NCBI GenBank assembly: GCA_020073495.1
Contig: JAIQFD010000001.1
Coordinates: 62,001-126,000, forward strand
Length of the DNA stretch: 64,000 nucleotides
Direction: 5' to 3'
DNA from: Terriglobia bacterium
GTDB taxonomy: Bacteria; Acidobacteriota; Terriglobia; Terriglobales; Acidobacteriaceae
Positions 17,452-27,667 of the stretch are shown in pieces (within the stretch, counting starts at the first letter, position 1; the number at the start of each line of letters is the position of its first letter). The translations under genes and the position numbers were made by a program. The notes under the pieces were generated by a model that worked only from the letters and a program-made list of their open reading frames with translations, made no database searches and was not told where the DNA came from.

Positions 17452-17465
17452 GAAATGGGTTGCTG

Positions 17466-19427
17466 ATGGGCCAAACAGTCGTTGAGAAGATCGCGCAGGC
17501 ACATCTCGCGGAAGGTCCGAAGCGGCCGCTGCGGGCGGGGGACTTCGTCTCCATCCGGCCGAAGCACGTGATGACCCACGACAACACCTCGCCGGTGATC
17601 AAGAAGTTCAAAGGCATCGGCGCGCAGAAGGTGCTCGACCCGTGCCAGCCGGTCTTCGCGCTCGATCACGACATTCAGAACACCACGGAAGAGAACCTGA
17701 AAAAATACCGCGCCATCGAAGCATTCGCGCGCGAGCACGGCATCGATTTCTATCCCGCGGGCACCGGTATCGGACACCAGGTCATGGTGGAGAATGGCTA
17801 CGTGACGCCGGGCTCGTTCGTGGTGGCCTCAGACTCGCACTCTAACATGTACGGCGCGCTGGGAGCGATCGGCACGCCGGTGGTGCGCACCGACGCCGCT
17901 GCTATCTGGGCCACGGGCGAGTTCTGGTGGCAGATCCCGCGCACCGTGCAGGTGGTGCTCGAGGGCCATTTGCCCGAGGGCGCGACTGGCAAGGACGTCA
18001 TCATCGCCCTGTGCGGGCTCTACAACCAGGAAGAGGTGCTGAACGCGGTGGTGGAGGTCGGCGGACCCGGCCTGGCGTCGCTCTCCGTGGACGCGCGCCT
18101 GACCATCGCCAACATGAGCACCGAGTGGGGCACGCTCGTCGGCTGGTTCCCGGTGGATGCCGCCACCATCGCATACGTGCGAAGCGTGCACGCGAAGTTG
18201 AAGGCGCAAGGTATCGAGCGCTTCACCGCCGCTGACATCGTGCGCTGGGAGAAAGACCCGCCCTGTCCTGATGCCGACGCGCGATACGCGGCGCGGATCG
18301 TGCTGAATCTGAATGAGGTGACGCCGCACGTCTCCGGCCCGGATACGGTGCAGGTGATGGCGTCGCTGGCGGAGATCGGGCCGAAGAAGATCGCCATCCA
18401 GAAGGCGTACCTGGTTTCGTGCGTGAACTCGCGCGTGGAGGATTTGGAGGCCGCGGCGCAGGTGCTGAAAGGCAAGAAGGTCGCGCCGACGGTGAAGTTC
18501 TATCTCGCGCCGGCGAGCAAAGAAGTGCAGGCCGAGGCCGAGAAGCGCGGCATTTGGCAGACCATCCTGGATGCCGGCGCCGTCACGCTTCCCGCCGGTT
18601 GCGGCCCCTGCATCGGGCTGGGCACGGGACTTCTGGAGCCCGGCGAAGTCGGCATTTCCGCCACCAATCGCAACTTCAAGGGCCGCATGGGGTCGAAGGA
18701 CGCACAGTGCTATCTCGCGAGTCCGGCGGTCGTGGCGGCGTCGGCGGTCGCAGGATTCATTACGGCGCCGCGCCCGTCGGAGACCCGCCCCGACGTGATC
18801 AATCGCAATTACACCGAGTTCCAGGCCAAGACAGCGGACGAGACCGTCGAGATCTTGCCCGGCTTCCCCAGCGAAGTGCGCGGCCGACTGGTGTTCATGC
18901 CGAAAGATAACCTCAACACCGACGGCATCTATCCCGGCACGTACACTTATCGCGACGACATGACGCCGGAGATGATGGCCAAGGTCATCTTCGGGAATTA
19001 TGATGCCGAGTACGCCAAGAATGCGCGTGCGGGTGATGTGGTGGTCGGCGGCTTCAATTTTGGCACCGGCTCCAGCCGCGAGCAGGCGGTCACATCGCTG
19101 AAAGCGGCGGGCATCCCGCTGGTCATCGCGGGTAGCTTTTCGCAGACCTACCTGCGCAACGCCTTCAACAACGGCTTCCTCTGCATCGAAGTGCCGGAAT
19201 TCGTGGGCAAGCTGAAGAGGGCCTTTGCGGAAGAAAAAGACAAGACGATCGTGCCCGGCGATGATGTTCTGATCGATTTTCGCTCGGGCGAGATCACTTA
19301 TCGCGGGGAGAAGTTCCGATTTTCGCCGCTGGGGACAGTTCCGCAGTCGCTGGTGATCGCGGGCGGAGTGGAGAACCTGGTGGCGAAGAAACTAGGACTA
19401 CGGGAGTCGCACGCCGCAACACGGTAG
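17466..19427 (+). CDS. Homoaconitase-like fused hydro-lyase (aconitase superfamily, large plus small domains)
   Basis: 653 residues with the large [4Fe-4S] domain and swivelling small domain in one chain. Cluster cysteines are the single Cys in LVSCVNSRVEDLEAA and the pair in PAGCGPCIGLGTG. The small-domain active-site loop is FGTGSSREQA. The stretch ASDSHSNMYGALGAIG followed by TDAAAIWATGEFWW strongly recalls fungal homoaconitase (Lys4) rather than bacterial AcnA or LeuCD. It probably isomerises a citrate-like acid by dehydration and hydration; the substrate is not known. Fe-S supply would come from the isc operon. Start at ATG 17466, with no clear ribosome site because of the repeat. Confidence 0.87.
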   Translation: MGQTVVEKIAQAHLAEGPKRPLRAGDFVSIRPKHVMTHDNTSPVIKKFKGIGAQKVLDPCQPVFALDHDIQNTTEENLKKYRAIEAFAREHGIDFYPAGTGIGHQVMVENGYVTPGSFVVASDSHSNMYGALGAIGTPVVRTDAAAIWATGEFWWQIPRTVQVVLEGHLPEGATGKDVIIALCGLYNQEEVLNAVVEVGGPGLASLSVDARLTIANMSTEWGTLVGWFPVDAATIAYVRSVHAKLKAQGIERFTAADIVRWEKDPPCPDADARYAARIVLNLNEVTPHVSGPDTVQVMASLAEIGPKKIAIQKAYLVSCVNSRVEDLEAAAQVLKGKKVAPTVKFYLAPASKEVQAEAEKRGIWQTILDAGAVTLPAGCGPCIGLGTGLLEPGEVGISATNRNFKGRMGSKDAQCYLASPAVVAASAVAGFITAPRPSETRPDVINRNYTEFQAKTADETVEILPGFPSEVRGRLVFMPKDNLNTDGIYPGTYTYRDDMTPEMMAKVIFGNYDAEYAKNARAGDVVVGGFNFGTGSSREQAVTSLKAAGIPLVIAGSFSQTYLRNAFNNGFLCIEVPEFVGKLKRAFAEEKDKTIVPGDDVLIDFRSGEITYRGEKFRFSPLGTVPQSLVIAGGVENLVAKKLGLRESHAATR

Positions 19428-20138: not shown

Positions 20139-21373
20139 TGGCGAAGTTCACAGTTGTGACCATGCCGGGCGACGGCATCGGGAACCAGGTCCTGCCGGAA
20201 GCCCTGCGTGTGCTGAACGCCGTCGATTTCGACGCCGAGTACATCCATGCCGACATCGGCTGGGAGATCTGGTGCAACGAGGGCAATGCCCTGCCCGACC
20301 GAACCGTCGAGCTGCTGGAGAAGCACAAGCTCGGCCTGTTCGGCGCCATCACCTCGAAGCCGAAGAAAGAAGCCGACGCGGAGCTGAAGTCTGCCCTGAA
20401 AGGTAAAGGCTACGTCTACTACAGCCCCATCGTGACCATGCGCCAGCGCTTCAACCTGGATATCTGCATGCGCCCGTGCATCGGCTTCCCGGGCAATCCG
20501 CTGAACTTCATCCGCAAGAAGACGGACGGCGGCTGGGATGAGCCGCACGTGCGCTCCGTCATCTTCCGCCAGGGCACCGAAGGGCTCTACTCGGGCGTGG
20601 AGTGGACGAACCCGCCGGAGAACGTCCGCGCGGCCTTCGCCTCACATCCGAAATTCAAGCCGTTCAAGGATGTAAAGGGCGCGGACCTGGCGGTGTCGCT
20701 GCGCATCATCACCCGCGAGAACGCGCGCCGAATCGCTGAGGCGGCGTTCAAGTACGCGCGCAAGCACGGCTTCAAGAGCGTGACCATTTGCGAGAAGCCG
20801 AACGTGCTGCGCGAGACCTCGGGGATGATGGAAGAGGTCGCCAGGGAAGTGCAGAAGCAATATCCCGAGATCCCGCTGTGGAGCACCAACATCGACGCCC
20901 AGATGATGTGGCTGACCAAGAACCCCGAGGAGTACGGCGTGCTGATCGCGTCAAATCTGTTCGGCGACGTGATCTCGGATGCCTTCGCCGGCCTCGTCGG
21001 CGGGCTGGGCTTCGCCGCCAGCGGCAACATCGGCGACGATGTCGCGGTCTTTGAGCCGACGCACGGCTCGGCGCCCAAGTACGCGGAGCTGAAGCCGCCC
21101 ATCGTCAACCCCATCGCCATGATCCTGTCGTCCGCGATGATGCTCGACCACATCGGCGAGCACCAGAGATCGAAGACGATCTGGGACGCCGTCGGCGACG
21201 TGGTGAAGGAAGGAAAAGTACGCACCTACGACATGATGCGCATCCCCGGCGGCGCCAAGGCGATCTCGCAGGGCGCGGCCTCGACCATTCAGATGACCGA
21301 CGCCATCCTGCGCGCGGTCGAGAAACGGATACAGCATGCCGAAAGCAAAGGCGAGCCCGCCGCGGCCCGCTGA
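20138..21373 (+). CDS. Isocitrate/isopropylmalate dehydrogenase family enzyme of unassigned substrate
   Basis: 411-residue beta-decarboxylating dehydrogenase. Family marks include MPGDGIGNQVLPEAL at the N-terminus, the metal-site block SNLFGDVISDAFAG and the cofactor loop EPTHGSAPKYA. The Lys-Tyr after HGSAP is the pattern of NADP-specific isocitrate dehydrogenase, so NADP use is inferred. Where E. coli IDH has S113-x-N115 contacting isocitrate, this protein reads SPIVTMRQ, and the usual RENTEG/RENSED motif is RQGTEG. By-eye alignment therefore points to an altered substrate. It overlaps the CitDE start by 38 nt. Confidence 0.85.
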   Translation: MAKFTVVTMPGDGIGNQVLPEALRVLNAVDFDAEYIHADIGWEIWCNEGNALPDRTVELLEKHKLGLFGAITSKPKKEADAELKSALKGKGYVYYSPIVTMRQRFNLDICMRPCIGFPGNPLNFIRKKTDGGWDEPHVRSVIFRQGTEGLYSGVEWTNPPENVRAAFASHPKFKPFKDVKGADLAVSLRIITRENARRIAEAAFKYARKHGFKSVTICEKPNVLRETSGMMEEVAREVQKQYPEIPLWSTNIDAQMMWLTKNPEEYGVLIASNLFGDVISDAFAGLVGGLGFAASGNIGDDVAVFEPTHGSAPKYAELKPPIVNPIAMILSSAMMLDHIGEHQRSKTIWDAVGDVVKEGKVRTYDMMRIPGGAKAISQGAASTIQMTDAILRAVEKRIQHAESKGEPAAAR

Positions 21374-22556
21374 GGCCGGGCACTGGGGCGCGGAGATCCG
21401 CTCGGACCTGCACGTGGCCATCGAGCCGCGCACTTCGGGCGGGCTGAAGCTGGAGCTCGAGTCGCGCGTCGCGCCCTACTACGGGCGGCAGATCCGGGCA
21501 CAAGCTCGCGAGGTGCTGGAGCAGCTCCGCGTCAAACACGCACAGGTCGTAATCCACGACGAAGGCGCTCTGCCGTTCACCATCGCGGCCCGCATCGAAG
21601 CGGCGGCGCGTCGAGCGGGTTTGGTCAATGGCCGTCGCGCGCTGCCGGAACGCAACGTGGATCCGCCGCCGACCGCGCGCGATCACCTGCACCGCTCGAG
21701 GCTCTACCTGCCCGGCTCGGAGCCGAAATATTTCATCAACGCGGCGCTGCATGGGCCCGACGCGGTCATCCTTGACCTGGAAGACGCGGTGCATCCGCAG
21801 GAAAAGGATGCGGCGCGCCTGTTGGTGCGCAACACGCTGCGCTCGGTGGACTTCGGCGCGTGCGAGCGTATGGTACGAATCAACCAGGGCCCGCTCGGAC
21901 TGGAGGACCTGGAAGAGATCGTACCGGAAAGACCCGACCTCATCCTCATCCCGAAAGTTGAAACCGCCGCGCAGGTGGTGGAAGTGGATCGGCGGATCGG
22001 AGAGATCCAGAAGAAGCACCGCATCAACCGGCCACTGTGGCTGATCCCGATCCTGGAGTCGGCGCTGGGGATCGAGAACGCGTTCGCCATCGCCAAGGCC
22101 AGCGGGCGCAACGTGGCTCTGACCATTGGCCTGGAGGACTACACCGCCGATCTCGGCGTGGTAAAGACTGCGACTGGCACGGAGTCACTGTTCGCGCGCC
22201 AGCGCGTGGTGAATGCCGCGCGCGCTGCCGGCCTGCAGGCGAACGACTCCGTGTACGGCGACATCGGCGACATGGAAGGCCTGTTGCGCTGGGGCATCGC
22301 GGCGAGGGCCATGGGCTTTGAAGGCATGGGCTGCGTGCACCCGTTGCAGATCGAGGTCATCCACAAGGCGTTCGCGCCCAGCGAGTTGGAGATCGAGAAG
22401 GCACTGAAGATTGTCGCCGCGTATGACGAAGCACAGTCAAAAGGCCTGGGCGTGGTCTCGCTGGGTTCGAAAATGATCGATCCTCCGGTAGTACAGCGTG
22501 CGCTGAAGCTGGTGGCACGGGCGCGAAGCATGGGTCTGGTAAAGGACAACGCATGA
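21336..22556 (+). CDS. CitD-CitE fusion: citrate lyase acyl-carrier plus beta-subunit-like protein
   Basis: 406 residues. Residues ~15-100 read like CitD, the acyl carrier of citrate lyase (LHVAIEP, LKLELESRVAPYYGRQIRAQ, VVIHDEGALPFTIAARIEAA). Ser23 in IRSDLHV aligns with the serine that carries the phosphoribosyl-dephospho-CoA arm. Residues ~118-400 are CitE/HpcH aldolase-lyase (RLYLPGSEPKYF, DAVILDLEDAVHPQEKDAAR, PILESALGIENA). CitD and CitE are normally separate subunits. The start lies within the upstream dehydrogenase, and the stop overlaps citF (ATGA). No citC, citX or citG is present in the window. Confidence 0.82.
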   Translation: MPKAKASPPRPAEAGHWGAEIRSDLHVAIEPRTSGGLKLELESRVAPYYGRQIRAQAREVLEQLRVKHAQVVIHDEGALPFTIAARIEAAARRAGLVNGRRALPERNVDPPPTARDHLHRSRLYLPGSEPKYFINAALHGPDAVILDLEDAVHPQEKDAARLLVRNTLRSVDFGACERMVRINQGPLGLEDLEEIVPERPDLILIPKVETAAQVVEVDRRIGEIQKKHRINRPLWLIPILESALGIENAFAIAKASGRNVALTIGLEDYTADLGVVKTATGTESLFARQRVVNAARAAGLQANDSVYGDIGDMEGLLRWGIAARAMGFEGMGCVHPLQIEVIHKAFAPSELEIEKALKIVAAYDEAQSKGLGVVSLGSKMIDPPVVQRALKLVARARSMGLVKDNA

Positions 22557-24166
22557 AGCGAGCCGCATCCAAGACCGCACCGGAACTGGTGACCAACGCC
22601 GCAGGGCGCGAGGTCCCGACCCTGGTCAACGGCAAGAAGCAGCAGCCATACGCGGGCGTGGACGGCGTACCGGCGAAGGGACGCAAGGCGGCGCCGCCTA
22701 TCCCGTCAGCCTCCGACTATCCGAAAAGCGGCGACAAGCGGCTGCCCGATCTCGAAACCGCGCTGCGGCTGTGCGGCCTGCGCGACGGCATGGTCGTCTC
22801 CAATCACCACCACCTGCGCAACGGCGATGTCATCGCCGTGCGGATGCTCGAAACTGCCGCGCGCATGGGCATTAGAGACCTGATGTGGTTTCCGTCGGCC
22901 TCGTTCCCCTCGCAGGAGTCGGTGATCGAGCTGATGGAGCGCGGGGCCGTGCACCACATCGAGGGCTCGATGAACGGCCCGCTGGGCGACTACTGCACGC
23001 AAGGAAGGATGCGCGGCATGGGCGTGCTGCGTTCGCACGGCGGACGCTGGCAGGCCATCCAGGACGGCGAGGTGCACATCGACATCGCGGTGATCGCCGC
23101 GCCCACCGCCGACACGTTCGGCAATGCCAACGGCGCATTCGGGAAGTCGGCGTGCGGGTCGCTTGGATTCGCGCTGGCCGACTCGATGTACGCCGGCAAG
23201 GTCATCGTGGTCACCGACAACCTGGTTCCCTTCCCTTGCGTGCCGGCGCAGATCCAGGGCAACCACGTGGACTTCGTGGTCGAAGTGGACTCCATCGGTG
23301 ACCCAACCAAGATCGTCTCCGGCACCACGCAGATCACGCGCAGCCCCGACCGCCTGCGCATCGCGCGCCTGGTGGCGGAGTTCCTGCGCGCCGCCGGCAT
23401 CATGCGCGACGGCTTCTCCTTCCAGGCCGGCGCCGGCGGCATCGCGCTGGCCTTCGTGCAGTACCTGCGCGACATGATGAAAGAAGCCGGCGTGAAGGCG
23501 CGCTTCGTGCGCGGCGGCTCGACCCAGTTCCTGGTGGACCTTCTCAAAGAAGGGCTCACCGACTACATCCTCGACGGGCAAACGTTCGATCTCGCCGGCG
23601 TGCAGTCCATCGCCAGCGACCCGCGTCACATTCCCACATCGCCGTTCACGTCGTACAACTTCCACGGCAAGGGTTTCTACGGGCAGTTCGTGGACGCGGT
23701 CGTGCTGGGCGCGACCGAGGTGGACGTCGACTTCAACGGCAACGTCGTCACCCACTCCGATGGCCGCCTGCTGCACGGCATCGGTGGCTGGCAGAACTGC
23801 CTGTTCTCCGGCTGCACCATCCTGGCGGTGCCATCGTTCCGCGACCGCATTCCGGTGATCGTAGACAAGGTCACGACCCTAACCGGCCCGGGCGAACTGA
23901 TCGACGTTGTCGTCACCGAGCGCGGCATCGCCATCAACCCGAGGCGAAAAGACCTGATCGATGCGACGAAGGGCTCGAAGCTGCCCTTCCGGCCCATCCA
24001 GGAGATCCAGCGTGAGGTTGAAGGAATCTGCGGCGGCAAGCCCCAAAAGCCGCGCCTCGGCGACCGCCCAGTGGCCGTAGTGAAGTGGGTGGACGGCTCG
24101 GTGCTGGACACGGTTTGGCAGGTGATTGGGCCGGTTTCGAACGCACCATCGGCCAGCGCAGAGTAA
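22553..24166 (+). CDS. citF: Citrate lyase alpha subunit-like (citrate:acetyl-ACP transferase)
   Basis: 537 residues matching CitF, which moves the acyl carrier arm from acetate to the incoming citrate. Motifs include GLRDGMVVSNHHHLRNGDVI, GSMNGPLGDYCTQG, RSHGGRWQAIQDGEVHIDIA, FGNANGAFGKSACGSLG and VVVTERGIAINPRRKDL. The start overlaps the CitDE stop by four bases, so the two are co-translated. With CitDE this gives a complete three-function lyase from two genes. Given the surrounding homoaconitase-like and IDH-like genes, the natural substrate may be a citrate analogue. Confidence 0.88.
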   Translation: MKRAASKTAPELVTNAAGREVPTLVNGKKQQPYAGVDGVPAKGRKAAPPIPSASDYPKSGDKRLPDLETALRLCGLRDGMVVSNHHHLRNGDVIAVRMLETAARMGIRDLMWFPSASFPSQESVIELMERGAVHHIEGSMNGPLGDYCTQGRMRGMGVLRSHGGRWQAIQDGEVHIDIAVIAAPTADTFGNANGAFGKSACGSLGFALADSMYAGKVIVVTDNLVPFPCVPAQIQGNHVDFVVEVDSIGDPTKIVSGTTQITRSPDRLRIARLVAEFLRAAGIMRDGFSFQAGAGGIALAFVQYLRDMMKEAGVKARFVRGGSTQFLVDLLKEGLTDYILDGQTFDLAGVQSIASDPRHIPTSPFTSYNFHGKGFYGQFVDAVVLGATEVDVDFNGNVVTHSDGRLLHGIGGWQNCLFSGCTILAVPSFRDRIPVIVDKVTTLTGPGELIDVVVTERGIAINPRRKDLIDATKGSKLPFRPIQEIQREVEGICGGKPQKPRLGDRPVAVVKWVDGSVLDTVWQVIGPVSNAPSASAE

Positions 24167-24206: not shown

Positions 24207-24512
24207 TCAAATGTCCCCGCACGGGCTCAGCGTCAGCAGCTTGTCTTTCGCCGTAAGGTCTGCCACCGAACACAGCGCCGGATGCGGATCGGTGCAGAAC
24301 GGGCACTTCCCCAGCTTCACCTCGGCTTCCCATCCATCTCGCCCGCGCACGTAGAACCGATCTCCGTTCTCGCGCCGCAGGTGCGCGACTACCTCTTCGA
24401 CCATCAGCACTTCTTTCCAGCCGTCGTCGTCGCCGATGCCGACGTGCGAGATGTGCCGGTGCGGGTCTTCGGCGCGGTCCTTGCGGGTGATGCAGACGAT
24501 CCGCTTCCGCAT
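24207..24512 (-). CDS. DUF3892-like small protein with a CPFC motif
   Basis: 101 residues starting MRKRIVCITRKD. The layout (RIVCITR, DPHRHISHVGIGDDDGW, VAHLRRENGDRFYVRGRDGWEAEV) resembles DUF3892, a small domain of unknown role. A cysteine cluster CPFCTDPHPALC near residues 70-81 could bind metal or be redox active. The ATG at 24512 overlaps the real stop codon of the radical SAM selenoprotein gene (TGATG), so it is translated with that gene. The overlap also supports the read-through end point of the upstream gene. Function unknown. Confidence 0.7.
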   Translation of the reverse strand: MRKRIVCITRKDRAEDPHRHISHVGIGDDDGWKEVLMVEEVVAHLRRENGDRFYVRGRDGWEAEVKLGKCPFCTDPHPALCSVADLTAKDKLLTLSPCGDI

Positions 24513-25912
24513 CAGAAAGCGGCCAACTGGCCGCTGGTGGGCTCCGCTCAGCAGTACCAGGGCTCGTTCAGGTAAGGGACCGTGGCCCGGTTTTGCGCCG
24601 GTGGCACGGGCAGGACGGGCAGCGGCTTCGCTTCTCTTTTCGCCTGCTGGAGCAGCGTCCAGATGATCTCGAATGTTGCCGAGCGGCTGAGCTTTCTCTT
24701 GGAGGCGCCCTGCACGGCGGACTCGATGGAACGCTGGAGTTCGTCCACGCGCGGATCGGGATTCGCCCAGCCATGGCTGAGGGCCTGAGGGTCGAATTCG
24801 CCGATCCGCTGCCGTAGTTCTTCCAGCTCGAGCAATCGCGAACCTGCTGGGATCAGCAGCCGGATCGCCAGTTGGATCGGCGGCACCTGCTCGATCAGGC
24901 CCAGCTCGACCAGCGTCAGCAGCAGATCTTCGTACCCGCCGAGCGAGATCCACGGCGTGAAGGGAACGAACGTCGGAACCAGGAACATGCCGAGATCGCG
25001 GAAAAGCTGCGCGACGCGCACGAAATCGGCCCGTGTGTGCCCTTTTTCGAGCAGCGCGAGCACTCGATCGTCCACCGACTCGACCGCGGAGGTCACGAAG
25101 GCGCATCCGGTGTCGCGCAGCTCCGTCAGTGTTTGGGCATGTTTCAGCAGGTGCTCGATCTTGATGGTCACGTCGTAGCTGACCTGCGGATGCTCGCGGT
25201 GCAGCGCCCGCACGATCTCCAGCCCGTGCGCCGGGCCGTTGAAGAAATCTGGATCGCCGAAGGTGATGTGCTGCGCGCCGGCTGCGACCTGCTGGCGGAT
25301 GTCGGCCAGCACCACTTCCCGCTGCACTACGCGGAAGGCGCCCTTGTACACCGGCACGATCGGACAGTGGCGGCACAGGTGTTTGCAGCCGCGCGTCGCC
25401 TCGGTGTAGCCAACGACACGCGTGGAGCCGTCGGGAAGTGTGAGATGGGCGTAGCGCTCCAGCGGCGGCAAGCCGGCGCGATCGGGGATCATGAAATCCT
25501 GACGCGCGAGGGAGATCTCCGGCTCAGACTGTGCTCCCCGACCGCCGAGGGCCACGCGACGCGCCAGGCTTAGCAGGCCTTCCTCGAATTCTCCTCCGAG
25601 AATGGTTGCGACCCCGATCTCGCGCAGGAAAGCGGCATTCACCGGCGCGTACAGTCCGTAGGCACAGAGATGCGCCCGAGGGTTCAGCTCTCGCACCTTG
25701 CGCAGTGCAGAGACTGCGATCCGGGTGGCGGTATGCATCGGCAGGTAGAAGGCAACGAGTTCCGCCGATCGGATCAGGTCGGCGTCGAGGATCTGTCGTG
25801 AAAGATCGACCTGCGCGACCCCGAAGCCATCGCGGCGCAACCATGCCGCGGGCGACGCCAGGCCGAAGGGCTGGCGGCCCAGTTCGTAGGTCGAGATGAG
25901 GACGATGCGCAT
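24512..25912 (-). CDS. Radical SAM selenoprotein with CUAEP tail (Sec at the in-frame TGA 24548-24550)
   Basis: Radical SAM enzyme of 466 residues if TGA codon 455 is read as selenocysteine. The N-terminal ~120 residues resemble a B12-binding-type Rossmann domain. The SAM-cluster motif CKHLCRHC has cysteines at 176, 180 and 183. Reading stops at TGA right after NEPWYC, but the frame continues A-E-P-T-S-G-Q-L-A-A-F before a second TGA at 24514-24512. The resulting Cys-Sec-Ala-Glu-Pro tail is the signature of the CUAEP/CCAEP-tail radical SAM (seleno)protein family. A SECIS-like hairpin follows, and the next gene starts exactly at the second stop. The reaction is unknown. Confidence 0.88.
24518..24535 (-). 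promoter_or_regulatory. Candidate bacterial SECIS hairpin
   Basis: On the minus strand: AGCGGCC-AGTT-GGCCGCT, a perfect 7-bp stem with a 4-nt loop holding GU. The loop starts 19 nt after the TGA at 24548-24550. Bacterial SECIS elements lie just downstream of the UGA, with the apical loop roughly 16-37 nt away and a G among its first bases; both rules are met. Confidence 0.78.
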
Positions 25913-25993
25913 CCGATGGAACGCAGGCAGTTGTGCGAAACTAGATTGCTCCCCCGGTCTCCATGCTAATACAGAGGCCGGGTTTCACGCCTT

Positions 25994-27280
25994 ATGTCCA
26001 CCGTTTCCAGGCCGCGGCTTCTGCTGCTCTGCACCAAGCTGGGCTACCAGACACGCGCCTTCGCCGAGGCCGCACAGCAACTCGGTCTGGAGGTCGCCTT
26101 CGGCACCGACCGCTGCCACGTGTTGGAAGACCCGTGGGGCGACCACGCGCTGCCGCTCCATTTCGAAGATCCCAAGGGAGCGGCGAGCAAGGTGATCGAG
26201 TTCGCTGCGAACACGCCCATCCATGCGGTGATCGCAGTGGGCGACCGCCCCACGCCCACGGCGGCGCGGGTGGCGCAGGCGCTGGGATTGCCAGGACATC
26301 CCCCTCAGGCGGCCGACATCTGCCGCGATAAGTACCGTTCGCGCGAGGTCCTGCGGAAGGCGGGCTTGAAGGTGCCGTCGTATGAGCGATTCCTCGCCGA
26401 TGAGGATCCACAAAGGCTGGCTTCGGGCGTCGCTTACCCGTGCGTGGTGAAGCCGGTCGCGCTTTCCGGCAGCCGCGGCGTGATCCGGGCCGATACCCCG
26501 GCCGAGTTCGTCGCTGCCTTCGAGCGCGTGCAGCGGCTGCTGGCCAGCGGCGAGATCAAGGCGCTGCGCGAGGACACCAGCGAGTTCATCCAGGTGGAAA
26601 ACTACATCGAGGGCGTAGAAGTTGCCGTCGAGGCACTGGTCGAGCACGGCCGGCTACACGTGCTGGCCATCTTCGACAAGCCCAACCCGCTCACCGGCCC
26701 ATACTTCGAGGAAACCATCTACGTCACTCCATCGCGGCTCGCCGATGGCGTACAGGAATCTGTCATGCGCGCCCTGGACGCCGCTGTGCGCTCCCTGGGG
26801 CTGCATCACGGGCCGGTGCATGCGGAATTCCGGGTGAATGACCGGGGCGTGTACGTGCTGGAGGTCGCGGCGCGCTGTATCGGCGGACTGTGCGCCCGCG
26901 CCCTGCGTTTCAAGATACCGCTGCTCAAGCAGGACATGTCGCTGGAAGAGGTGCTGATCCGCCTGGCGCTGGGAAATGATGTCCGGCGCGTGGTGCGGGA
27001 AGACCGCGCCTCCGGCGTGATGATGATCCCGATCCCGAAACCCGGCTTCTACGAAGCGACGCGCGGGGTGCAGTTCGCGATGGCCGTGCCCGGCATCGTG
27101 GACATCGAGATCACGGCCAAGCCCCAGCAGAAGCTGGTGCCGCTTCCGGAAGGCTCGAGCTACCTGGGATTCATTTTCGCCCGCGACAACACTCCAGAAC
27201 TCGTGGAACGGGCGCTGCGTGAAGCCCACGGGAAGCTGGAATTCGTGGTCGCGCCGGAGCTGCCCATCGTCCGTGGCTAG
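25994..27280 (+). CDS. ATP-grasp domain ligase-like protein
   Basis: 428 residues. The N-terminal pre-ATP-grasp domain (LLLLCTKLGYQTRAFAEAAQQLG) is followed by an ATP-grasp fold: CRDKYRSREVLRKAGL, YPCVVKPVALSGSRGVIRAD, EFIQVENYIEGVEVAVEALV and the metal-binding block HAEFRVNDRGVYVLEVAAR. It probably makes a carboxylate-amine or peptide-like bond via an acyl phosphate; substrates are unknown. It is divergent from the radical SAM selenoprotein gene with only 81 bases between the starts, so the two may share regulation. A bidirectional terminator follows it. Confidence 0.83.
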   Translation: MSTVSRPRLLLLCTKLGYQTRAFAEAAQQLGLEVAFGTDRCHVLEDPWGDHALPLHFEDPKGAASKVIEFAANTPIHAVIAVGDRPTPTAARVAQALGLPGHPPQAADICRDKYRSREVLRKAGLKVPSYERFLADEDPQRLASGVAYPCVVKPVALSGSRGVIRADTPAEFVAAFERVQRLLASGEIKALREDTSEFIQVENYIEGVEVAVEALVEHGRLHVLAIFDKPNPLTGPYFEETIYVTPSRLADGVQESVMRALDAAVRSLGLHHGPVHAEFRVNDRGVYVLEVAARCIGGLCARALRFKIPLLKQDMSLEEVLIRLALGNDVRRVVREDRASGVMMIPIPKPGFYEATRGVQFAMAVPGIVDIEITAKPQQKLVPLPEGSSYLGFIFARDNTPELVERALREAHGKLEFVVAPELPIVRG

Positions 27281-27343: not shown

Positions 27344-27667
27344 TCACTGCTTGGTCTTGGGTGGAACGTAGCCTTCCGGCAGGGCCGCGCCTTCGCCGAA
27401 AAAGTACTGCTCCATCTGCTGCACGATGAGTTCCTGGTCTTTCTTGTTGGCGGGGTTCAGGCGATACTCATTCAGGATCATCTTGCAGTGCTCGCCCCAC
27501 ATCTTCCACGCCTCGGCGGAGACGTTTTCGAAGATCTTCCTGCCCAGTTCGGTGTCGAACGGGGGCTCGTCGAGGCCGGGCATCTCGCGCTGGAACTTGA
27601 CGCAAAATACCTTGCGCTGGTTGGGATCGTGCGATCCGGGCGGGATCGGCGGTGCTCCACAGCTCAT
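27344..27667 (-). CDS. yggX: YggX family Fe(2+)-trafficking / oxidative damage protection protein
   Basis: 107 residues; the core (about residues 17-90) matches YggX: KVFCVKFQREMPGLDEPP with the conserved cysteine, then ELGRKIFENVSAEAW and LNEYRLNPANKKDQEL. The protein protects Fe-S enzymes and handles labile iron in the cytoplasm. It has a short Pro-rich N-terminal extension and a C-terminal tail compared with the ~90-residue E. coli protein. Start at 27667 after GGAAGGAA. A decayed copy of its promoter and first codons lies at 30926-31160. Fe-S-dependent enzymes nearby make the context sensible. Confidence 0.9.
   Translation of the reverse strand: MSCGAPPIPPGSHDPNQRKVFCVKFQREMPGLDEPPFDTELGRKIFENVSAEAWKMWGEHCKMILNEYRLNPANKKDQELIVQQMEQYFFGEGAALPEGYVPPKTKQ

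What the first reader, a model, noticed from the sequence alone, without database searches (positions are those of the whole stretch)
24512..25912. Radical SAM gene ends in a selenocysteine UGA (CUAEP tail) with a SECIS hairpin
Seen: a conventional caller stops this gene at the TGA 24550-24548 after NEPWYC. In frame beyond it lie A-E-P and eight more codons to a second TGA (24514-24512). The Cys-Sec-Ala-Glu-Pro tail is the defining end of the CUAEP/CCAEP-tail radical SAM (seleno)protein family. A perfect 7-bp hairpin with loop AGUU starts 12 nt after the UGA (loop at 19 nt), and the next gene starts at the second stop (TGATG). Known: bacterial SECIS geometry and the existence of the family. 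Inferred: the host has Sec machinery and a vicinal Cys-Sec redox centre finishes this enzyme. The family's reaction is, to my knowledge, unknown.
Basis: partly seen in the sequence, partly recalled or inferred. Interest (0 to 1): 0.92.

Follow-up and report, generated by a model that had tools for sequence, protein, structure and literature searches.

The report
Selenocysteine-tailed radical SAM enzyme, ligase partner
This bacterial gene does not stop where a gene finder would end it: an in-frame stop codon almost certainly inserts selenium near the end of a radical enzyme, and nearly every relative checked also carries a second enzyme that looks like a peptide-bond maker, which gives a testable idea of what this uncharacterised family makes.

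Summary
The ORF 25912-24548 ends ...NEPWYC-UGA; in frame follow AEP and eight codons to a second UGA, and a perfect 7-bp hairpin (loop AGUU, 19 nt after the UGA). The genome has tRNA-Sec, SelA, SelB and SelD, and its SelD also has an in-frame TGA. The protein belongs to the existing NCBIfam family NF040546 (634.8 bits, cut-off 500). Of 78 related loci with readable tails, 59 have UGA and 19 Cys at this codon. UGA members keep an uninterrupted stem of at least 6 bp in 41 of 57 distinct tails (6.2 expected by synonymous shuffling), Cys members in 2 of 17 (1.5 expected). All 30 phylum genomes with a full-tailed UGA form have SelA. So this is a member of a known family. New, as far as my searches go: an L-amino-acid-ligase-type ATP-grasp, divergently next door, is present in 43 of 43 phylum genomes with the enzyme and 4 of 254 others. 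The nearest other family is ArsL (arsinothricin synthesis); RCCLKC-tailed kin of ArsL carry a ligase of the same type in 15 of 16 plasmid records. Best mechanism (inferred): ArsL-like transfer of an aminocarboxypropyl group from SAM to a soft acceptor held by the Cys-Sec arm, then ligation to another amino acid.

The parts
24512..25912 (-). CUAEP-tail radical SAM selenoprotein gene, 466 aa, stop UGA at 24514-24512
   Evidence: NF040546 634.8 bits; Pfam Radical_SAM at 172-310
24548..24550 (-). UGA read as selenocysteine (residue 455)
   Evidence: 59 UGA and 19 Cys codons at this place in 78 related loci; Sec machinery in the genome
24518..24535 (-). SECIS hairpin: 7-bp stem, loop AGUU, loop 19 nt after the UGA
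   Evidence: stem kept in UGA members beyond synonymous shuffles, not in Cys members
24512..24514 (-). second UGA, taken as the real stop; overlaps the ATG of the next ORF
25364..25387 (-). radical SAM motif C176-x3-C180-x2-C183 (CKHLCRHC)
   Evidence: invariant in 50 aligned members
25994..27280 (+). ATP-grasp ligase of the L-amino acid ligase type, divergent from the radical SAM gene (81-bp gap)
   Evidence: PF13535 and PF18603 over cut-off; nearest PDB chain BL00235 L-amino acid ligase 3vot, E 4.4e-45; present in 43 of 43 phylum genomes with the radical SAM enzyme
25913..25993 (.). divergent intergenic stretch, inferred to hold both promoters
   Evidence: inference from coordinates
27344..27667 (-). 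Fe(II)-trafficking protein (YggX family), convergent with the ligase; start codon not settled
   Evidence: PF04362 E 1.5e-35; homologue in 45 of 80 related loci
24207..24513 (-). small 101-aa ORF starting inside the stop (TGATG); no Pfam or NCBIfam match at E 0.001
   Evidence: no homologue in 80 related loci at E 1e-5

Best explanation
A radical SAM selenoprotein of family NF040546, paired with an ATP-grasp amino acid ligase. SHOWN BY SEQUENCE: the UGA at 24550-24548 has every mark of a Sec codon, with a bacterial SECIS just behind it, giving a Cys-Sec-Ala-Glu-Pro tail; the host has the Sec machinery; the enzyme and the ligase are near-obligate genomic partners; the closest other family is ArsL. 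INFERRED: SelB with Sec-tRNA binds the hairpin and inserts Sec. The [4Fe-4S] cluster on CX3CX2C cleaves SAM in the ArsL manner, freeing a 3-amino-3-carboxypropyl radical. The mobile C-terminal Cys-Sec arm holds a soft, thiol/selenol-binding acceptor and presents it to that radical. The product, an alpha-amino acid, is then joined to another amino acid by the ligase. YggX or NfuA-type Fe-S proteins next to the pair help supply iron. The acceptor is unknown; there is no sign that it is arsenic. My confidence by step: Sec insertion 0.97; ligase works in the same pathway 0.9; ArsL-like SAM cleavage 0.45; arm holds the acceptor 0.4.
For: Sec: tRNA-Sec, SelA (6), SelB wing domain, SelD with one in-frame TGA (12); UGA or Cys at the codon in all 78 readable related tails; uninterrupted stem >=6 bp in 41 of 57 distinct UGA tails against 6.2 expected, Cys tails 2 of 17 against 1.5, median hairpin MFE -10.9 against -2.8 kcal/mol, compensating pair types in the stem; 30 of 30 UGA-form genomes have SelA, 5 of 9 full-length non-UGA ones, background 201 of 297. 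Pairing: 43 of 43 against 4 of 254, Fisher p about 1e-47; ligase within 1 kb of the enzyme in 54 of 80 loci, and elsewhere in the genome in 19 of 23 genomes tested where it is not beside it. ArsL kinship: 266 bits, next family 38.5 bits; 40 columns invariant in both groups; same ligase type in 15 of 16 RCCLKC/ArsL plasmid records, all 15 within 2.5 kb. ArsL is proposed to transfer the aminocarboxypropyl group to arsenite: PMC8552651 (passages), and later enzymology as cited in PMC12159101 (passages).
Against: No homologue of ArsM, ArsQ, ArsN1, ArsR, arsenic pump, or the MFS and GTP-binding proteins of the arsinothricin-type clusters was found in 91 CUAEP loci (flanks at most 7-8 kb, for ten of them about 1.5 kb), so the acceptor need not be arsenic and ArsL chemistry may not carry over. 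The score is below the ArsL cut-off (266 of 450), and the tails differ (RCCLKC against W[Y/F]C[C/U][A/S]EP, some 34 residues further along). Three genomes with the enzyme have no ligase match at E 1e-20 and a fourth only a 27% one; three of these four (L066, L069, L075) have a methyltransferase near instead. Ten of 57 distinct UGA tails have fewer than 5 uninterrupted pairs and two Cys tails keep 6. The ligases of the two radical SAM groups are only distantly alike (27% at best). p-values ignore shared ancestry. No protein-level evidence of Sec.
Confidence: 0.5

Rival explanations
1. Sec-containing radical SAM enzyme in which the Cys-Sec arm is a redox dyad (as in the C-terminal Gly-Cys-Sec-Gly of mammalian thioredoxin reductase, recalled) that reduces the substrate or an intermediate, with ordinary 5'-deoxyadenosyl radical chemistry making an amino acid or amine that the ligase uses.
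For: Vicinal Cys-Sec near the C-terminus; Sec and Cys interchange on the tree at least 8 times by parsimony, 4 of them forced by well supported branches, as expected of a redox residue; structural neighbours AprD4, MgmA, OxsB and TsrM.
Against: The closest sequence family by far is ArsL (266 against 38.5 bits), with the same ligase type beside its RCCLKC kin.
Confidence: 0.3
2. It is an arsenic enzyme: the arm holds As(III) and the pair makes an arsinothricin-like peptide, the ars genes lying elsewhere in the genome.
For: ArsL kinship; ATP-grasp partner in ars clusters of Alicyclobacillus, Priestia, Pantoea and Klebsiella.
Against: None of 91 CUAEP loci has a homologue of the ars genes used as queries, whereas all six RCCLKC/ArsL loci whose annotation I read lie among ars genes. 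Ars genes elsewhere in the genomes were not sought.
Confidence: 0.12
3. The UGA is a real stop; AEP and the hairpin are remnants of a Cys ancestor or chance.
For: The window hairpin alone could arise in about 1.2% of synonymous variants; z-score of the 53-nt fold only -0.63; the RefSeq annotation of the T. roseum homologue ends at the UGA.
Against: Stems kept in UGA but not Cys members, with compensating pairs; AEP or SEP after each of 59 UGA codons; 30 of 30 UGA genomes have SelA.
Confidence: 0.02

Closest known systems
NCBIfam NF040546, CUAEP/CCAEP-tail radical SAM (seleno)protein
   Same: 634.8 bits over the whole length (profile 1-467 of 468), CX3CX2C, Cys-Sec-Ala-Glu-Pro tail
   Different: nothing found; it is a member. 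No paper in the library held names the family
ArsL and RCCLKC-tail radical SAM proteins (NF040542)
   Same: 30-33% identity along residues 1-406; 40 columns invariant in both groups; C-terminal vicinal thiols; an L-amino-acid-ligase-type ATP-grasp within 2.5 kb in 15 of 16 plasmid records
   Different: 266 bits against a cut-off of 450; tail and its position differ; no ars genes found in 91 CUAEP loci; no Sec in the four RCCLKC/ArsL proteins aligned
L-amino acid ligase BL00235 (3vot) and BacD
   Same: closest solved relatives of the partner at 25994-27280, ATP-grasp_4 plus LAL_C2
   Different: substrates of the partner unknown
AprD4, MgmA, OxsB, TsrM (solved radical SAM enzymes)
   Same: fold of the model, corrinoid-binding-like N-terminal domain plus barrel (Z 24.7-26.1, 357-420 residues aligned, rmsd 3.1-3.7)
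   Different: 14-18% identity; no DxHxxG cobalamin motif in the window protein

Membership tests
NF040546 CUAEP/CCAEP-tail radical SAM | model score at or above the curated cut-off (500 bits) | tested here: met
   634.8 bits, E 8.1e-191
NF040546 CUAEP/CCAEP-tail radical SAM | C-terminal Cys-[Sec/Cys]-Ala-Glu-Pro | tested here: met
   all 78 readable related tails have Cys, then U or C, then [A/S]EP
NF040546 CUAEP/CCAEP-tail radical SAM | radical SAM CX3CX2C motif | tested here: met
   CKHLCRHC at 176-183; Pfam Radical_SAM 50.2 bits
bacterial selenoprotein | tRNA-Sec, SelA, SelB, SelD in the genome | tested here: met
   (SelB by its C-terminal wing domain)
bacterial selenoprotein | hairpin just 3' of the UGA, conserved in UGA members | tested here: met
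bacterial selenoprotein | selenium in the protein | not testable with these tools
   needs 75Se labelling or mass spectrometry
ArsL (NF040542) | model score at or above cut-off (450 bits) | tested here: not met
   266.2 bits
ArsL (NF040542) | C-terminal RCCLKC | tested here: not met
   ends CUAEPTSGQLAAF
ArsL (NF040542) | setting among ars genes | tested here: not met
   0 of 91 CUAEP loci match ArsM, ArsQ, ArsN1, ArsR or arsenic pump queries; the queries come from five plasmid loci only
ArsL (NF040542) | aminocarboxypropyl transfer from SAM | not testable with these tools
   needs purified enzyme
L-amino acid ligase (partner 25994-27280) | ATP-grasp_4 and LAL_C2 domains over cut-off | tested here: met
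   114.5 (cut-off 27) and 52.1 bits (cut-off 29.4)
L-amino acid ligase (partner 25994-27280) | amino acid ligation | not testable with these tools
   needs enzyme assay
cobalamin-dependent radical SAM | DxHxxG cobalamin motif | tested here: not met
   no match of D-x-H-x-x-G in the window protein, although residues 1-121 fold like corrinoid-binding domains (to 1y80, Z 13.2, rmsd 2.4, 116 residues aligned)

The most novel reading that the evidence does not exclude
The radical SAM enzyme and the ligase form a minimal two-gene pathway for an unknown peptide-like metabolite containing a non-arsenic heteroatom amino acid (for example selenium, tellurium or phosphorus bound to the aminocarboxypropyl group of SAM). 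The Cys-Sec arm would be a carrier that presents that element to the radical: a selenoprotein that uses Sec as a substrate clamp in radical chemistry rather than as a redox residue.
Probability: 0.2. Interest if true: 0.85.

Novelty: new member of a known kind. Interest (0 to 1): 0.58.

Why it matters
I know of no reaction for this family, and no paper in the library searched names it. A near-obligate ligase partner and ArsL kinship turn a name into a definite experiment: two genes, SAM, a short list of soft acceptors, and a mass to look for. If the Cys-Sec arm holds a substrate, it would be an unusual use of selenocysteine. In practice, gene finders cut such genes at the Sec codon: both the mechanical ORF here and the RefSeq annotation of the Thermomicrobium roseum homologue stop at the UGA.

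Tried and rejected
Real stop at the first UGA: rejected on stem conservation and SelA co-occurrence. Arsenic operon enzyme: made unlikely by the lack of ars partners in 91 loci (an ArsI query was out of frame and does not count; T. roseum does have an annotated MFS transporter next to the enzyme, which did not match the MFS query). Sec or read-through in the ligase: the stops seen inside six ligase matches are their natural ends. A known RNA family at the hairpin: Rfam gave one chance hit elsewhere, E 2.7. Pathway members from conserved neighbours: an aconitase (29 of 81 sources, window counted), G6PDH and glucokinase (domains checked on examples) recur, mostly in contigs labelled Acidobacteria, and were not taken as parts; DUF169 (7 of 80 loci), a ureohydrolase (7, of which 4 downstream within 1.1 kb) and methyltransferases (L066, L069, L075) occur in subgroups. 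In 37 fetched ligase regions (six hold the enzyme too) the commonest other neighbours are a YggX-type (10) and an NfuA-type Fe-S protein (10); other clusters reach at most 5 apart from the enzyme itself. The small ORF after the stop has no family match and no relative in 80 loci at E 1e-5. No solved ArsL stood in the rows shown by the structure searches; that is no evidence on the fold. Rows dropped: L076 (contig ends before the tail) and L079 (Ns after the UGA); and of L095-L104, five were not in the 84 tails, because that script read one strand (L095 Cys; L098, L101, L102 UGA; read later, not added to the counts) or the gene is cut (L104). In one search four of 43 hits do not reach the tail and were left out of the Sec/Cys count, and G192 has a TAG as well as a TGA inside its match. 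In one search I gave 23 of the 26 loci without an adjacent ligase (L018, L055, L076 left out) plus T. roseum, of which only the plasmid record was searched.

Full report
WHAT IS THERE. The minus strand 25912-24512 encodes a radical SAM protein. The ORF finder ends it at the UGA 24550-24548 (454 aa). In frame follow GCG GAG CCC and eight more codons to a second UGA; with UGA read as Sec the protein has 466 residues and ends ...NEPWYC-U-AEPTSGQLAAF. A perfect 7-bp hairpin with loop AGUU lies at 24535-24518, its loop 19 nt after the UGA.

IS IT SELENOCYSTEINE. The genome (3.70 Mb in 8 contigs, completeness given as 100%) has a tRNA-Sec with anticodon UCA, SelA at 464 bits, a SelB wing domain at 47 bits in a 697-aa frame and SelD at 376 bits, itself with one in-frame TGA. 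L076 ends before the tail and L079 has the UGA but runs into Ns.

THE HAIRPIN IS SELECTED. With five further loci and the window, one search gave 65 UGA and 19 Cys tails, 57 and 17 of them distinct. An uninterrupted stem of at least 6 bp at the fixed place (5' arm closing at position 22, loop 3-6) is present in 41 of 57 UGA tails; synonymous shuffling of the codons expects 6.2. Among Cys tails it is 2 of 17 against 1.5 expected. Median MFE of the element is -10.9 against -2.8 kcal/mol. Two registers occur, loop of 4 (17 tails) and loop of 5 (32), and the stem positions change pairs in a compensating way, for example G-C, A-U, C-G and U-A at pair 18-32 of the loop-5 set. Against: ten of the 57 UGA tails have fewer than 5 uninterrupted pairs; eight of these have a mismatch or bulge inside a longer stem, as one search shows (L032, L034, L039, L040, L047, L089, L091, L093). 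For the window alone a 7-bp stem turns up in 249 of 20000 synonymous variants, and the 53-nt fold has z -0.63 with only the upper four pairs in the MFE structure.

SEC MACHINERY FOLLOWS THE UGA FORM. In the same 297 genomes of the phylum, 43 have the enzyme over the family cut-off. All 30 with a full tail and an in-frame TGA have a strong SelA (one, G192, has a TAG in its match as well); of nine full-length ones without TGA (G117, G103, G194, G167, G027, G282, G078, G246, G264) five have SelA and four do not; the background is 201 of 297 (Fisher p 0.0015 for 30/30 against 5/9). Four further hits (G148, G113, G270, G001) do not reach the tail and were not counted. On an 88-row tree (quick method) Sec and Cys forms interchange at least 8 times by parsimony, 4 of them forced by the well supported branches.

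WHAT FAMILY. NF040546, CUAEP/CCAEP-tail radical SAM (seleno)protein, 634.8 bits (cut-off 500); next ArsL, NF040542, 266.2 bits (cut-off 450); third at 38.5 bits. The family is therefore known; the papers held do not name it (no paper has CUAEP, RCCLKC, CCAEP-tail or NF040546), and a 2026 review of prokaryotic selenoproteins (PMC13188914, passages only) does not mention NF040546 or CUAEP in its main text. The predicted structure (pLDDT 91) is a corrinoid-binding-like N-terminal domain plus a radical SAM barrel, nearest solved folds AprD4, MgmA, OxsB and TsrM. The segment 436-442 is below pLDDT 50 and the tail 441-466 has block means of 61-80, which fits a mobile arm but does not show one.

THE PARTNER. 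Divergently from the gene, 81 bp away, lies an ATP-grasp protein (25994-27280) with ATP-grasp_4 and LAL_C2 domains, closest in the PDB to the L-amino acid ligase BL00235 (3vot, E 4.4e-45) and BacD. It matches in 55 of 80 related loci, in 54 of them within 1 kb of the enzyme. Where it is not beside the enzyme it is elsewhere in the genome in 19 of 23 genomes tested (41-62% identity). In the 297 phylum genomes its orthologue (E <= 1e-40) is present in 43 of 43 with the enzyme and 4 of 254 without a hit over the cut-off (G016, G253, G288 at 31% identity, and G197, which holds the enzyme gene in two pieces) (Fisher p about 1e-47, not corrected for ancestry). It is the only ATP-grasp_4 protein (E <= 1e-10) in seven of eight genomes looked at, the eighth (Nonomuraea) having none. 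Exceptions: Nonomuraea (L066), L069 and L075 lack a close orthologue and group together on the tree (SH-aLRT 83); each has a methyltransferase near the enzyme. L043's genome also gave no match.

THE LINK TO ARSL. Among plasmids, 16 records carry RCCLKC-tail or ArsL radical SAM proteins that match this one along residues 1-406 at 30-33% identity. In 15 of these 16 a ligase of the same type lies within 2.5 kb, and these 15 are the best 15 of 33 plasmid records found with the Alicyclobacillus ligase; the exception is Pseudomonas amygdali arsL. Seven of the 15 are Priestia and six Pantoea, so they are few independent cases. The ligases of the two groups are related to each other only distantly (27% identity, E 2e-25), but both are closest to BL00235 among solved structures. 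40 columns are invariant in both radical SAM groups (51 and 4 rows), among them the motif cysteines and the first tail cysteine. In 91 CUAEP loci no homologue was found of ArsM, ArsQ, ArsN1, the MFS or the GTP-binding protein (E 1e-8), nor of ArsR, the arsenic pump or the aquaporin (E 1e-5); the T. roseum locus does have an annotated MFS transporter beside the enzyme.

HOW IT PROBABLY WORKS. [quoted passage not shown] coli cells with arsL alone make hydroxyarsinothricin (PMC8552651, passages read); a 2024 enzymology paper is cited for the reaction in PMC12159101 (passage read; I did not read that paper itself). Such a transfer makes an alpha-amino acid, which is what an L-amino acid ligase needs, and both sister groups of radical SAM enzymes keep such a ligase. 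I therefore infer that the CUAEP enzyme makes an aminocarboxypropyl compound and the ligase couples it to another amino acid. The Cys-Sec arm may hold the acceptor, as the RCCLKC tail may hold As(III) in ArsL (both inferred). Iron-sulfur helpers near the pair fit an iron-sulfur enzyme: YggX-type in 45 and NfuA-type (Fe-S_biosyn plus NifU domains) in 9 of 80 loci, not all of them adjacent; 10 and 10 of 37 ligase regions. The acceptor is not known. The chief rival is ordinary 5'-deoxyadenosyl chemistry with Cys-Sec as a redox pair.

VERDICT. Observation confirmed; first reading supported; a new member of a known family, with a well supported partner gene that gives a testable idea of its reaction.

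Noticed in passing
L011 (own genome, G000:C4:415672-416595): The genome's own SelD has an in-frame TGA near its start, with a 7-bp stem and GGT loop behind it: a second selenoprotein here.
   Followed up: partly
L113 8001-9440 (Thermomicrobium roseum plasmid NC_011961.1): The annotated CUAEP protein WP_012643191.1 ends at the UGA; AEP and a possible hairpin (by eye) follow, so the annotation is probably cut short.
   Followed up: partly
L115, L116, L117, L170, L171: RCCLKC radical SAM genes sit with an ATP-grasp ligase in plasmid ars clusters of Alicyclobacillus, Priestia, Pantoea and Klebsiella, which suggests peptide forms of arsinothricin-like compounds.
   Followed up: partly
window 21336-22556 and 22553-24166: A protein with an MdcD/ACP-type domain (22-94) fused to an HpcH_HpaI aldolase domain (120-336), followed by CitF: looks like citrate lyase with gamma and beta chains fused; an aconitase lies at 17460-19427.
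   Followed up: no
L015: A contig labelled Verrucomicrobia encodes an enzyme almost identical to those of Acidobacteria contigs L016 and L017 (tree): probably a wrongly binned contig.
   Followed up: no
L058, L079, L082, L083: In contigs labelled Chloroflexi or Thermomicrobiales a ureohydrolase (arginase family) gene lies downstream of the radical SAM gene.
   Followed up: no
L069, L075: The enzyme is followed by DUF169, a methyltransferase and a protein with CdhD and 4Fe-4S domains, without a close ligase orthologue in the genome.
   Followed up: partly
window 24207-24513: A 101-aa ORF starts inside the stop (TGATG); it has a CPFC motif, no family match; it resembles DUF3892 by recall only.
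   Followed up: partly
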